Positions 1-63,847 of a stretch of DNA of 64,000 bases are shown here, piece after piece. Made by a program: the position numbers and the translations under genes. The stretch's first letter is position 1. Each line of letters begins with the position of its first letter. The DNA is taken from assembly GCA_902793465.1 (NCBI GenBank), contig CADBDT010000009.1, positions 1 through 64,000 of the forward strand, in the 5' to 3' direction. The notes under the pieces were generated by a model. The model was given only the letters and a program-made list of their open reading frames with translations. It was not told the origin of the DNA and did not search any database. This DNA comes from an uncultured Coriobacteriaceae bacterium. Its GTDB lineage: Bacteria > Actinomycetota > Coriobacteriia > Coriobacteriales > Atopobiaceae.

Positions 1-98
1 CGCCAGACGGGAGAAGCCTCGCGACCACGGCGGCCGCCATGACTGCCGCAACGCTCGCGTATCCCTGGCGGAAGCCGAACTCGCGCTCTATTCTCCTG
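1..98. repeat. Left arm of a 98-bp perfect inverted repeat
   Basis: Bases 1-98 are the exact reverse complement of 3299-3396. Both arms encode the same part of an AbiEii-like toxin gene. Identity stops abruptly at base 98/3299; the other end may continue beyond the left window edge. It marks an inverted duplication flanking the two genes at 406 and 1556. Confidence 0.9.
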
Positions 99-142
99 TC
101 TAGCTCCGCGCGCGTGCGCGGTCTGTCCTCATACCCCGCCAT
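1..142 (-). CDS. AbiEii-like nucleotidyltransferase toxin, 5' part (runs off the window)
   Basis: On the minus strand an ORF starting at an ATG at 142 runs off the left edge. It encodes about 47 residues, MAGYEDRPRTR... to ...VVARLLPSG. The last 33 match what precedes the KGGSALRLRYG nucleotidyltransferase motif in the plus-strand copy at 3299. In type IV abortive-infection systems AbiEii is a nucleotidyltransferase toxin with a KGG-T/S-AL motif and a following RF(S/T)xDxD; those motifs would lie outside the window. The assignment therefore comes from the paralogous copy. No strong ribosome-binding site is visible. It could be intact or another fragment. Confidence 0.5.
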   Translation of the reverse strand, partial: MAGYEDRPRTRAELDRRIEREFGFRQGYASVAAVMAAAVVARLLPSG

Positions 143-1555: not shown

Positions 1556-3247
1556 ATGGCACGCACCATAAGCATAGGCGCGCAGGGCTTCGAGGACCTG
1601 CGGGCGAACGGGTGCTTCTACGTGGACAAGACCAGCTTCGTGCGGGACTGGTGGCTCGCGCGCGACCAGGTGACCCTGGTCTGCCGCCCACGCCGCTTCG
1701 GGAAGACGCTCAACCTGGACACGGTGCGCTGCTTCCTCTCCACGGAGTTCGCCGGGCGCGGCGAGGAGCTGTTCGGCGAGCTGGACGTGTGGGCGGACCC
1801 CGACATGCGCGCTCTGCAGGGTACGGTGCCGGTGGTGGCCATGAGCTTCGCCAAGTGCAAGGGTGCCACGCTGGACGAGACGCTCACGGGTCTGAAGCGG
1901 GTGATTCGCACCGCAGTCGAGGCGCACGGCTACCTGCATGGGTCGGACACACTCACCGACGGTGACCGCACGTTCCTCGCGCGCGTCTCCGATGACATGG
2001 ACAACGCCACCGCCGCCGACGCTGTGAACCAGCTCTGCTTGATGCTACGCCACCACTGGGGTGTGGCTCCCGTTGTCCTTCTGGACGAGTACGACTCGCC
2101 CATGGAGGTCGCCTGGACGCACGGCTACTGGGATGAGGCCTCCTCTTTCATGCGCCAGCTCATGAACTCGACGTTCAAGACTAACCCTGCGCTCGGCCGC
2201 GGCCTCATCACGGGCGTCACGCGCGTCAGCCGCGAGTCGATCTTCAGCGACCTCAACAACCTCTCCGTGGTCACCGCCTCCACTCCGCTCTACCAGACCT
2301 GCTTCGGCTTCACGCAGGACGAGGTCGACGAGGCACTGGCCGAGTACGGCCTCGGCGACCGCCGGCAGGACGTATGCGACTGGTACGACGGCTTCGTCTT
2401 CGACGGCCACGCCCACATCTACAACCCCTGGTCCGTCACGCAGTTCCTGCAGTACGGGGAGCTGCGTTCCTACTGGGCCAACACCTCCGGCAACGGCCTC
2501 GTCTCGGAGGTCGTGCGCCGGGGAGGAGCGCGCCTGAAGGCCGACTTCGAGGAGCTCATGCGTGGCGGTACCATCGAGAAGGTCATAGACGAGCAGGTGG
2601 TGTTCTCTGAGCTCGCTACGCGGCCCAACGCCGTGTGGGCCTTGCTGCTCGCAGCTGGCTATGTCACGACGCCGGGGCCGGTGCCCTACAACCTCGAGGA
2701 GACCCCGCGGCGTCTGCGGCTTACCAACCACGAGGTGGAGCTCACCTTCGACCGTATGGCGAAGGGCTGGTTCGCCGACGCGGAGGACGACTGGGATGAC
2801 CTAGCGCGGGCGCTCCTTGCCGGCGACGCGGAGGCCGCGACGGACTTCCTCGCGGATGTGACGTTCTACTGCATGTCGAGCTTCGATGGCGCGCGCCGTC
2901 CTGCCGAGAGCGAGCCGGAGCGCTTCTACCACGGCTTGGTGCTGGGCATGCTCGCGAGCCTTCGCGGCCGATGGTCCGTGGAGTCCAACCGCGAGAGCGG
3001 CTTCGGCCGCTACGACGTGGCGCTCGTGCCTACAGATGGCGCGCAGGGCACCGACCCGGCGGTCGTTATGGAGTTCAAGGTGTTCGACCGCCGCCGCGAG
3101 CGGACGCTGGAGGACACCGTGGCCCGCGCTCGCGCGCAGATAGAGGATAAAGACTACGTCTCCAGTCTCGCGGCCCGCGGCATAGCTCCCGACCGTATCC
3201 GCACCTACGGCATAGCTTTCCGCGGCAAGGAAGTGCTCGTGGGCTGA
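1556..3247 (+). CDS. AAA-ATPase-like / PD-(D/E)XK nuclease-like protein
   Basis: 563 aa, the usual length for proteins combining an AAA-ATPase-like N-terminus (PF09820) with a C-terminal PD-(D/E)XK-superfamily region (DUF1703, PF08011). Visible features: GAQGFEDLRANGCFYVDKTS at the start, a Walker A-like PRRFGKT near residue 47, and a Walker B-like VVLLDEYDSP near 175. The late GRYDVALVP ... VVMEFKVF pair near 485-510 has Asp and Glu-x-Lys as expected for a nuclease core. GGAGGG precedes the ATG by a few bases. The family is abundant and expanded in gut anaerobes. Its function is not established; a mobile-element or defence role is often suspected. It lies between two inverted AbiEii fragments, consistent with transfer. 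Confidence 0.85.
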   Translation: MARTISIGAQGFEDLRANGCFYVDKTSFVRDWWLARDQVTLVCRPRRFGKTLNLDTVRCFLSTEFAGRGEELFGELDVWADPDMRALQGTVPVVAMSFAKCKGATLDETLTGLKRVIRTAVEAHGYLHGSDTLTDGDRTFLARVSDDMDNATAADAVNQLCLMLRHHWGVAPVVLLDEYDSPMEVAWTHGYWDEASSFMRQLMNSTFKTNPALGRGLITGVTRVSRESIFSDLNNLSVVTASTPLYQTCFGFTQDEVDEALAEYGLGDRRQDVCDWYDGFVFDGHAHIYNPWSVTQFLQYGELRSYWANTSGNGLVSEVVRRGGARLKADFEELMRGGTIEKVIDEQVVFSELATRPNAVWALLLAAGYVTTPGPVPYNLEETPRRLRLTNHEVELTFDRMAKGWFADAEDDWDDLARALLAGDAEAATDFLADVTFYCMSSFDGARRPAESEPERFYHGLVLGMLASLRGRWSVESNRESGFGRYDVALVPTDGAQGTDPAVVMEFKVFDRRRERTLEDTVARARAQIEDKDYVSSLAARGIAPDRIRTYGIAFRGKEVLVG

Positions 3248-3298
3248 AGGGGGTGCGCCACGGCAGCCTGCCAGTCTGCAGTTCGCATCCATCGCAAA

Positions 3299-3396
3299 CA
3301 GGAGAATAGAGCGCGAGTTCGGCTTCCGCCAGGGATACGCGAGCGTTGCGGCAGTCATGGCGGCCGCCGTGGTCGCGAGGCTTCTCCCGTCTGGCG
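3299..3396. repeat. Right arm of the 98-bp inverted repeat
   Basis: Reverse complement of 1-98, identical at every base. It holds the 5' part of the truncated AbiEii-like pseudogene. Confidence 0.9.
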
Positions 3397-5914: not shown

Positions 5915-6177
5915 GAGTGAACACAACTACACCCAACTTCGGTAAAACCCCAGTTGGCGGACACCTGAAAAAGCTCGTTTTGGTAGTTGTGCTCTCGTAG
6001 AAAGTTTTACGAGAGCACAACTACCAAATAGGCACATAAGAATCGGTAAAATACCAGTTGGCTCGTGCTCAGAAGAGGCAAACTTGGTAGTTGTGAACTC
6101 TCTGGTTTGCGGCAAGAGTTCACAACTACACAACGGGGCCTCAGACCTATCAAAAGGGATACTCCCTCTTGATAGGT
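5915..6177 (+). repeat. Structured compound repeat, copy 1
   Basis: One of three similar elements (others at 45103 and 63345). Order of parts: an ACACAACTAC word; box GGTAAAACCCCAGTTGGC (5941); hairpin TTTGGTAGTTGTG/CACAACTACCAAA (about 5974-6027); second box GGTAAAATACCAGTTGGC (6045); hairpin GTAGTTGTGAACTC/GAGTTCACAACTAC (about 6091-6128); and a final CTATCAA..TTGATAG hairpin. It ends about 110 bp before the alarmone synthetase start. Function unknown: a non-autonomous mobile element or a structured RNA is possible. Confidence 0.8.
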
Positions 6178-6285
6178 GATCCCGCCAGCCTTGGCAAAAA
6201 GCTGAACGCCGCTTAATGCTTGCGGTTTTACGGTGGCGATGCGGGCTTCCTGTTTCAAACGCAAGTATTGGGGTACATAGTTCGT

Positions 6286-45102: not shown

Positions 45103-45353
45103 GAGTTCACAACTACAGCCCTCGCCGGCAAAACCCCAGCTCGCGGATGCCTGTAAGAAGGCGTTTTGGTAGTTGTGTTCTCCAGAAACGTTTCCCGAGA
45201 ACACAACTACCAAACGACTACATAAATAATGGTAAAACCCCAGTTCGCGCGCTCCAAGAGATGCTGCTATGTGTAGTTGTGAACTCCGTGGACTGTGGCG
45301 GGAGTTCACAACTACATCTGGGCCTATCAAGAGGGGTACTCCCCCTTGATAGG
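45103..45353 (+). repeat. Structured compound repeat, copy 2
   Basis: Same order of parts as copy 1 at 5915: GAGTTCACAACTAC; box GGCAAAACCCCAGCTCGC; hairpin TTTTGGTAGTTGTGTTCTC/GAGAACACAACTACCAAA; box GGTAAAACCCCAGTTCGC (about 45232); hairpin GTAGTTGTGAACTC/GAGTTCACAACTAC; final CCTATCAAGAGGGG/CCCCCTTGATAGG. It lies between the ferredoxin-like gene and ychF. Confidence 0.85.
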
Positions 45354-45434
45354 CCCCAATTTGTGGTTCGGCAACGCGCCAAGTTGCCCGGTGAAGTATA
45401 CTGTTCTTTCTTGAAATTGGACGAAGGAGCAACC

Positions 45435-63259: not shown

Positions 63260-63344
63260 GGTGCACCCCACGCACGCGGGCGATCAAGGACGTTCCTAGC
63301 AAGGGCCAGTTCCTGGCAGCCGCTTCTTAGAGCGGTATCGGGTA

Positions 63345-63589
63345 CACAATTGCGATGCGCTTCCGAAAAACCCCAGCTCGCAGACAGTTGTAAGGGGGTG
63401 TTTTGGTAGTTGTGCTCTCGGCAAACTTTTCCGGAGAACACAACTACCAAACCGCAACATAAAATGTGGTAAAAGGCCAGTTCGCACTCGTTAATTAGCG
63501 ATGGCTTTTGTAGTTGTGCACTGTCTGAATTTTGGTAAGAGTGCACAACTACATCTTGGGTAGTAACCTATCAAAAAGGGTACTCCCCA
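63345..63589 (+). repeat. Structured compound repeat, copy 3
   Basis: Same layout as at 5915 and 45103, with a degraded left end (CACAATTGC). Box CCGAAAAACCCCAGCTCGC; hairpin TTTTGGTAGTTGTGCTC/GAACACAACTACCAAA; box GGTAAAAGGCCAGTTCGC (about 63469); hairpin GTAGTTGTGCACT/GAGTGCACAACTAC. A last CCTATCAAAAAGGGTACTCC half-unit follows. The stem word in this copy is GTTGTGCACT rather than GTTGTGAACT, with the partner arm changed to match. Confidence 0.82.
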
Positions 63590-63835
63590 CCGCCATTAAG
63601 TTAGCGCTGTGCACATTGGGGATACTCCCCTGCGGGTACATCGCGGATGAGCCGGATCCCAACGAAGGCCCTGCTCGCGCTGTGCACATTGGGGATATTC
63701 CCCTGCGGGTACATCGCGGATGAGCCGGATCCCAACGAAGGCCCTGCTCGCGATGTACCCGATGGGGAGTATTCCCAATGTGCACAGCGCCCCCAGACCC
63801 TTAACTAAATGGCGCTGGGTACTCCCCCTTGATAG
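63590..63835. repeat. Composite palindrome array (includes GTACAT palindrome 15) with an internal direct duplication
   Basis: CACCGCCATTAAGTTAGCGC starts it. Then GCTGTGCACATTGGGGATAC through GCCCTGCTCGC occurs twice in direct order (63606-63678 and 63679-63751). The right half CGATGTACCCGATGGGGAGT...AATGTGCACAGCGC follows. Finally comes inverted TTAACTAAATGGCG and GTACTCCCCCTTGATAGG. It lies between the pentapeptide gene and the convergent Mur ligase. Confidence 0.8.
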
Positions 63836-63847
63836 GTTAATAGCCTG

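What the first reader, a model, noticed from the sequence alone, without database searches (positions are those of the whole stretch)
5915..6177. Three-copy structured element of about 250 bp with paired stem words and GGTAAAA boxes
Elements at 5915, 45103 and 63345 share a strict order. A box GGTAAAA-nn-CCAGTT-(G/C)GC is followed after about 25-30 nt by a hairpin whose arm is GTAGTTGTG-nn-CTC; then the box and hairpin come again; then a CTATCAA/TTGATAG hairpin. The variable nn bases in the stems change together (AA/TT in copies 1-2, CA/TG in copy 3), indicating selection for pairing. No protein is encoded. The box could be a protein or RNA target and the hairpins its structural partner. A non-autonomous transposable element, a structured RNA or a multi-site operator are all open.
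Basis: partly seen in the sequence, partly recalled or inferred. Interest (0 to 1): 0.65.

Follow-up and report, generated by a model that had tools for sequence, protein, structure and literature searches.

The report
Hairpin repeats paired with nuclease genes
This is a short, protein-less DNA element scattered through the genomes of a group of gut bacteria, and each variant carries the same short code word as one particular uncharacterised DNA-nuclease-like gene in the same genome, which suggests a previously undescribed kind of gene-and-repeat pair that spreads like mobile DNA.

Summary
The three window copies belong to a dispersed family: 10 clear copies in this genome, present in 15 of 16 species of its genus and in none of 44 genomes of other genera. 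The core (~215 nt) is half-site, box, hairpin 1, box, hairpin 2, with near-invariant spacing over 56 copies. The terminal CTATCAA hairpin is a separate repeat that also flanks the genome's single RAYT gene. Stems covary strongly, but wobble pairs are not favoured and the stem word also matches between the two hairpins. That points to one DNA-binding partner rather than to a functional RNA. The likely partner is an unannotated ~340-aa protein, a DUF559/Vsr/EDxHD-type PD-(D/E)XK nuclease by conserved residues and fold. Its gene ends directly in a full copy of the element, and gene-linked words match the dispersed copies of the same genome (2 of 40,320 pairings as good). Gene plus element recurs as a 1.3-kb unit at unrelated sites; dispersed copies have empty orthologous sites. 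Distant paralogues across the order carry their own gene-specific flanking words. Best reading: REPIN-like non-autonomous elements with a nuclease in place of the RAYT. Mobilisation and chemistry are inferred.

The parts
5915..5930 (+). copy 1, half-site (GAGTGAACACAACTAC), left end of the core
5941..5958 (+). copy 1, box 1 GGTAAAACCCCAGTTGGC
5983..6024 (+). copy 1, hairpin 1 (arms 5983-5996 and 6011-6024, loop 14)
6045..6062 (+). copy 1, box 2 GGTAAAATACCAGTTGGC
6087..6129 (+). copy 1, hairpin 2 (arms 6087-6100 and 6116-6129, loop 15), right end of the core
6146..6178 (+). adjacent CTATCAA..TTGATAG hairpin: separate RAYT-type repeat, not part of the element
45103..45116 (+). copy 2, half-site GAGTTCACAACTAC
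45127..45144 (+). copy 2, box 1 GGCAAAACCCCAGCTCGC
45169..45210 (+). copy 2, hairpin 1
45231..45248 (+). copy 2, box 2 GGTAAAACCCCAGTTCGC
45273..45315 (+). copy 2, hairpin 2; this copy lies upstream of ychF (ATG 45435), and the site is empty in the other 15 genus members
45321..45355 (+). adjacent CTATCAA..TTGATAG hairpin (separate repeat)
63340..63353 (+). copy 3, half-site GGGTACACAATTGC
63364..63381 (+). copy 3, box 1 CGAAAAACCCCAGCTCGC (degenerate)
63406..63447 (+). copy 3, hairpin 1
63468..63485 (+). copy 3, box 2 GGTAAAAGGCCAGTTCGC
63510..63552 (+). copy 3, hairpin 2
63567..63836 (+). CTATCAA..TTGATAG hairpin split by inserted copies of another palindromic repeat (separate)

Best explanation
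The element is a non-autonomous, REPIN-like mobile DNA module of ~215 nt: half-site, box, hairpin 1, box, hairpin 2. Its cognate trans-acting protein is a DUF559/Vsr/EDxHD-type PD-(D/E)XK nuclease whose gene carries the same module at its 3' end (stop codon at or just before the half-site). Shown: the gene-module linkage, the word match between gene-linked and dispersed modules in each genome, the conserved spacing and covariation, recurrence of the gene-module unit at unrelated loci, and presence/absence of modules at orthologous sites. Inferred: the protein recognises the stem word (five occurrences per module) as an inverted repeat or DNA hairpin, nicks or cuts at or near the constant AAAANNCCAG box, and so moves or copies both its own gene-module unit and module-only derivatives into intergenic sites. 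For this genome the gene at G000:C19:85478-86488 is the likely partner of the GTAGTTGTG copies, and the gene at C10:97906-98910 the partner of the TAACACGTGAAC copies.
For: Ten full copies in this genome, E 1e-31 to 1e-40; 15 of 16 genus genomes, 0 of 44 others. In 56 copies the loops are 14 (56/56) and 15 (55/56) and the hairpin offset is 104-106. Covariation: 21 pairs change on both sides, score 0.448 against 0.146 shuffled. Word agreement between hairpins 0.914 against 0.567 shuffled. The same protein family ends in a full module in G006, G015, G002 (two), G001 (two), G004, G013, as a remnant in G005, and in G000 C10 and C19, where the contig ends inside hairpin 1. Word match to own-genome genes: 545 against a permuted mean of 335, 2 of 40,320 permutations as high; for example GGCGGTTCGTGTAC occurs at the G001 C96 gene and at its dispersed C60 copy. 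Gene-module homology between G006, G015 and G002 stops ~50-70 nt before the start codon and at the end of hairpin 2 or earlier; flanks are unrelated. Empty sites: ychF locus 15 of 16; two G002 copies absent in G001. Protein: invariant E179, D224, E235, H241; DUF559 in 16 and MTES_1575 in 15 of 71 members; I-Bth0305I profile hit E 1.3e-4, fold match TMt 0.67. Distant paralogues: 18 of 59 share a word of 15 nt or more between their own two flanks, 0 of 50 controls; one such word is dispersed 19 times in its genome and absent from two others.
Against: No precise insertion junction or target duplication could be defined, because the intergenic DNA of even the closest genome is diverged. G007 and G008 have modules without a detected close gene, and G005 has only a gene remnant; all three are fragmented MAGs. 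No known DUF559/Vsr protein is a transposase to my knowledge, the fold matches are weak (no hit at E <= 0.001), and activity is untested. Word matching shows recognition or shared descent, not movement. Some dispersed copies could be old decayed gene-module units.
Confidence: 0.6

Rival explanations
1. Homing-type selfish element: the nuclease cuts at or near its word in element-free or diverged alleles, and host recombination copies the gene-module unit or the module into the break. There is no transposition chemistry of its own.
For: The closest solved relative by sequence is the EDxHD homing endonuclease I-Bth0305I; viral fold matches include homing endonucleases and DUF559 proteins; gene-module units differ in location between species.
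Against: Homing normally targets one allelic site. Here there are about ten unrelated intergenic sites per genome, flanks of copies share no visible target sequence, and module-only copies outnumber gene units.
Confidence: 0.18
2. The modules are chromosomal binding sites (operator, decoy or architectural sites) for the nuclease-like protein, which regulates itself or marks self DNA. Copies spread passively by recombination and are kept by selection on binding.
For: Fixed spacing near 10 helical turns, inverted word pairs and agreement of all five word positions fit a duplex-binding protein. Distant paralogues flanked by their own words would fit autoregulation.
Against: Module-only copies lie at unrelated loci with empty sites in sister species; a gene-specific word dispersed in another genus also looks like spread rather than regulation.
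Confidence: 0.15
3. Structured RNA (3' UTR element or small RNA) that was duplicated around the genome.
For: Stable stems with strong covariation; the module directly follows a coding gene.
Against: G.T deviations are not favoured over A.C (29 against 41), the word agrees across hairpins that do not pair with each other, loops vary, no Rfam match, and there is no common downstream gene.
Confidence: 0.05

Closest known systems
REP/REPIN elements with RAYT (TnpA-REP), e.g. PMC2817692, PMC3116915, PMC8049555
   Same: Dispersed extragenic palindromic modules; the cognate gene is linked to the same repeat; word and gene coevolve; gene presence goes with repeat abundance; several cognate pairs can coexist in one genome.
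   Different: Cognate protein is a PD-(D/E)XK/Vsr-type nuclease family without an HUH Y1 domain; the module is ~215 nt with two hairpins and two constant boxes; in this genus the repeat lies only 3' of the gene; ~10 copies instead of often >100; GTAG is not invariant and lies inside the stem.
EDxHD homing endonucleases (I-Bth0305I, PDB 3r3p)
   Same: Closest solved sequence and fold relative of the C-terminal nuclease domain.
   Different: Not inside an intron or intein; has ~170 additional N-terminal residues; linked to dispersed hairpin modules.
IS200/IS605-family non-autonomous derivatives
   Same: Subterminal hairpins and small protein-less derivatives of a one-gene unit.
   Different: No Y1 transposase at the modules; the only Y1 gene of the genome is flanked by a different repeat.
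BOX/ERIC-type mosaic repeats and classical MITEs
   Same: Short structured intergenic repeats.
   Different: No terminal inverted repeats or target duplication found; cognate gene identified.

Membership tests
REP/REPIN-RAYT (REPtron) | cognate gene encodes an HUH Y1 (PF01797) transposase | tested here: not met
   No PF01797 match in the linked protein; Pfam finds DUF559/MTES_1575 in the family. The genome's one Y1 gene is flanked by another repeat.
[quoted passage not shown]
   In this genus words lie only on the 3' side; in 18 of 59 distant paralogues a word is shared by both flanks.
REP/REPIN-RAYT (REPtron) | dispersed extragenic palindromes matching the gene-linked repeat | tested here: met
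REP/REPIN-RAYT (REPtron) | repeat and gene coevolve; gene presence correlates with copies | tested here: met
   Word match 2 of 40,320 permutations. Strong modules and a close gene in 7 genomes, strong modules only in 3 (one with a gene remnant), a close gene only in 0, neither in 6.
Homing endonuclease EDxHD | Vsr-like catalytic core with E-D-x-H-D residues | tested here: met
   Invariant E179, D224, E235, H241 and near-invariant D248; 3r3p hits. Assignment of roles to residues is from memory.
Homing endonuclease EDxHD | resides in an intron, intein or allelic site that it cleaves | tested here: not met
   Free-standing genes at unrelated loci; cleavage not testable here.
Classical MITE/IS | terminal inverted repeats and target-site duplication | tested here: inconclusive
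   Ends are half-site and hairpin 2, no TIR; junctions not resolvable.
Structured RNA family (Rfam) | match to a curated covariance model | tested here: not met
   Only a tRNA in the window at gathering thresholds.

The most novel reading that the evidence does not exclude
A previously undescribed class of prokaryotic mobile DNA: free-standing Vsr/DUF559-type nucleases of Coriobacteriales, diversified into many paralogues per genome, each with its own DNA word, that copy or move their gene and protein-less hairpin modules using a nuclease chemistry not known to drive transposition.
Probability: 0.42. Interest if true: 0.87.

Novelty: new variant of a known kind. Interest (0 to 1): 0.72.

Why it matters
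REPINs are, as far as I know, the main bacterial example of short sequence populations kept by a cognate single-copy gene, and that gene has always been an HUH transposase. An independent pair built on a restriction-like nuclease would show that the arrangement arose twice. It would give an annotation-free family, up to 15 paralogues per genome in a major gut lineage, a testable function, and it offers natural sets of matched proteins and DNA words for studying how recognition specificity evolves.

Tried and rejected
Strict hairpin pattern over 85k GTDB genomes: no hit (it fixed this species' word, and near kin are left out), so it says nothing about other words. RNA hypothesis: disfavoured by the wobble test. 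Y1/RAYT as the partner: rejected, because the only Y1 gene carries another repeat. CTATCAA hairpin as a component: rejected. Contig C31 pair of hairpins around DUF4160/DUF2442-like genes: a diverged duplicated segment, not the autonomous unit. AlphaFold with 5 sequences failed (pLDDT 36); with 71 sequences it succeeded (pLDDT 94.9). NCBIfam and PADLOC: no match. Word of paralogue L256 in G020: only two hits away from the gene, near chance, so not every paralogue has dispersed copies. Literature searches found no report of DUF559 or Vsr proteins linked to dispersed palindromes in the open-access library.

Full report
CHECK. The three elements are present at the stated places. The stem word GTAGTTGTG occurs 14 times in the window against 0.33 expected, and the internal offset of 104 nt is identical in all three copies. 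The core runs from a half copy of the stem word (5915, 45103, 63340) through box 1, hairpin 1 and box 2 to hairpin 2. The CTATCAA hairpin is a neighbour, not a part: seven further genomic copies lack it, it occurs alone in the window, and it resembles the repeats on both sides of the genome's only RAYT gene.

FAMILY. A pattern search found seven more full copies in the same 3.1-Mb genome. A covariance model built from the ten copies gives E 1e-31 to 1e-40 for them and finds more distant copies with another word. In 60 relatives it matches 15 of 16 genomes of the genus and none of 44 others. Named relatives are MAGs labelled Atopobiaceae or Coriobacteriaceae, several from sheep jejunum.

ANATOMY. 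In 56 copies from ten genomes, aligned without a model, the loop of hairpin 1 is always 14 nt, that of hairpin 2 is 15 nt in 55, and the two hairpins start 104-106 nt apart. Pairing is kept through 227 double changes (55 in shuffles; slid controls 25-56), and 94% of cells pair. The five variable word positions also agree between hairpin 1 and hairpin 2 of the same element (0.914, shuffled 0.567), although these do not pair with each other, and single-sided deviations do not favour G.T over A.C (29 against 41). Inference: selection acts on recognition of one word at several places by a DNA-binding factor; RNA folding is not needed. The box (A)AAANNCCAGNT is nearly constant while the word changes from TAGTT to TAGAT, CAACC, TAATT, GGCAC, AACAC or GGTTC.

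COGNATE GENE. Comparing ORFs around 51 copies showed a ~340-aa protein directly upstream of one copy in G006, G015, G002 (two), G001, G004 and, as a remnant, G005. In G000 two such genes exist: C10:97906-98910 ends in a module with word TAATACGTGAAC, matching dispersed copies at C11 and C22; C19:85478-86488 is followed by half-site, box and the first bases of GTAGTTGTGCTCTC, where the contig stops. G001 has a second gene whose word GGCGGTTCGTGTAC recurs in a dispersed copy. Over eight genomes, dispersed words match gene-linked words of their own genome better than under re-pairing (545 against a mean of 335; 2 of 40,320 as high, including the true pairing). Among 16 genus members, strong modules and a close gene co-occur in 7, modules alone in 3 (one with a gene remnant), a close gene alone in none, neither in 6.

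MOBILITY. Gene-plus-module loci of G006, G015 and G002 align only from ~50-70 nt (G006 pairs) or ~13 nt (G015-G002) before the start codon to the end of hairpin 2, or hairpin 1 in the more diverged pairs; flanks are unrelated, so the unit sits at different places. The ychF-upstream copy of this window is absent in all 15 other genus members although the locus is syntenic. Two G002 copies are missing from orthologous G001 sites. Exact junctions cannot be read because intergenic DNA is diverged. Shared sequence beyond the core is found only in some subgroups.

PROTEIN. The family has no NCBIfam or PADLOC match. In 71 paralogues from the order, S176, E179, N203, D224, E235 and H241 are invariant; 16 members match DUF559 and 15 MTES_1575 REase. 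A profile search of the PDB gives I-Bth0305I at 1.3e-4. AlphaFold2 gives pLDDT 94.9. Foldseek finds no PDB match at E <= 0.001 but lists the I-Bth0305I catalytic domain (TMt 0.67) and, weakly, TnsA, and in viral models homing endonucleases, Vsr and DUF559 proteins. Conclusion: a Vsr/EDxHD-like PD-(D/E)XK nuclease domain behind a large domain without a clear match.

BEYOND THE GENUS. Paralogues are common in the order (94 of 120 genomes). Of 60 distant ones, 13 have a 10-mer three or more times in the 3' flank, against 1 of 112 control stretches (P 4.5e-6); 18 of 59 share 15 nt or more between their own 5' and 3' flanks, against 0 of 50 controls. Words are gene-specific. The word of the G093 paralogue occurs 19 times in that genome and never in two others. 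Another word was not clearly dispersed. The box motif is about 4.5 times enriched in flanks of distant paralogues (12 hits in 49 kb against 5 in 91 kb).

MECHANISM. Most likely a REPIN-like system with a nuclease in place of the RAYT. Binding of the word, cleavage near the box and copying of the module are inferred, not shown. Homing and a pure binding-site role remain possible. RAYT features from PMC2817692 and PMC8049555 are met for dispersal, cognate linkage and coevolution, and not met for the HUH protein and two-sided flanking in this genus, so this is not filed as a REP/RAYT.

Noticed in passing
G000:C10:73102-73428 (L024:1111-1857, minus strand): Single Y1_Tnp/RAYT gene of the genome, flanked on both sides by CCTCTCAAGGGGGAGTACCCCTCTTGATTGG palindromes; the CTATCAA hairpins at 6146, 14369, 45321, 53398 and 63567 look like its REP family.
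   Followed up: partly
window 9463-63819, 17 sites (e.g. 31610, 41165, 53550, 60376): Another abundant palindromic repeat, CGATGTACC(C)G..GGGGAGTATCCCC, often in inverted pairs; its cognate gene was not sought.
   Followed up: no
window 63567-63836: A CTATCAA hairpin is split by inserted copies of the GGGGATACTCCCC/CGATGTACC repeat: nested insertion of one repeat family into another.
   Followed up: no
L020:2021-3434 (G000:C31): Two near-identical diverged module pieces 1.2 kb apart flank DUF4160- and DUF2442-like genes (by eye; a possible toxin-antitoxin pair); the contig ends inside the second piece.
   Followed up: no
L221 and L222 (G002 and G001): A segment of ~6 kb around one nuclease gene-module unit is 98-100% identical between two species whose other flanks compared were 82-95% identical, suggesting recent transfer.
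   Followed up: partly
window 1-99 and 3298-3396: Perfect 99-nt inverted repeat around an AAA-ATPase/PDDEXK_9 gene (1556-3247) and a ChW-repeat gene with a weak bAvd-like match (373-1122): a possible mobile unit or assembly feature.
   Followed up: no
L233 and L235 (G001, G002), 3' of the nuclease paralogue: Arrays of AAAGTCTGTA with 21-nt period in direct and then inverted orientation, another architecture of gene-specific words.
   Followed up: no
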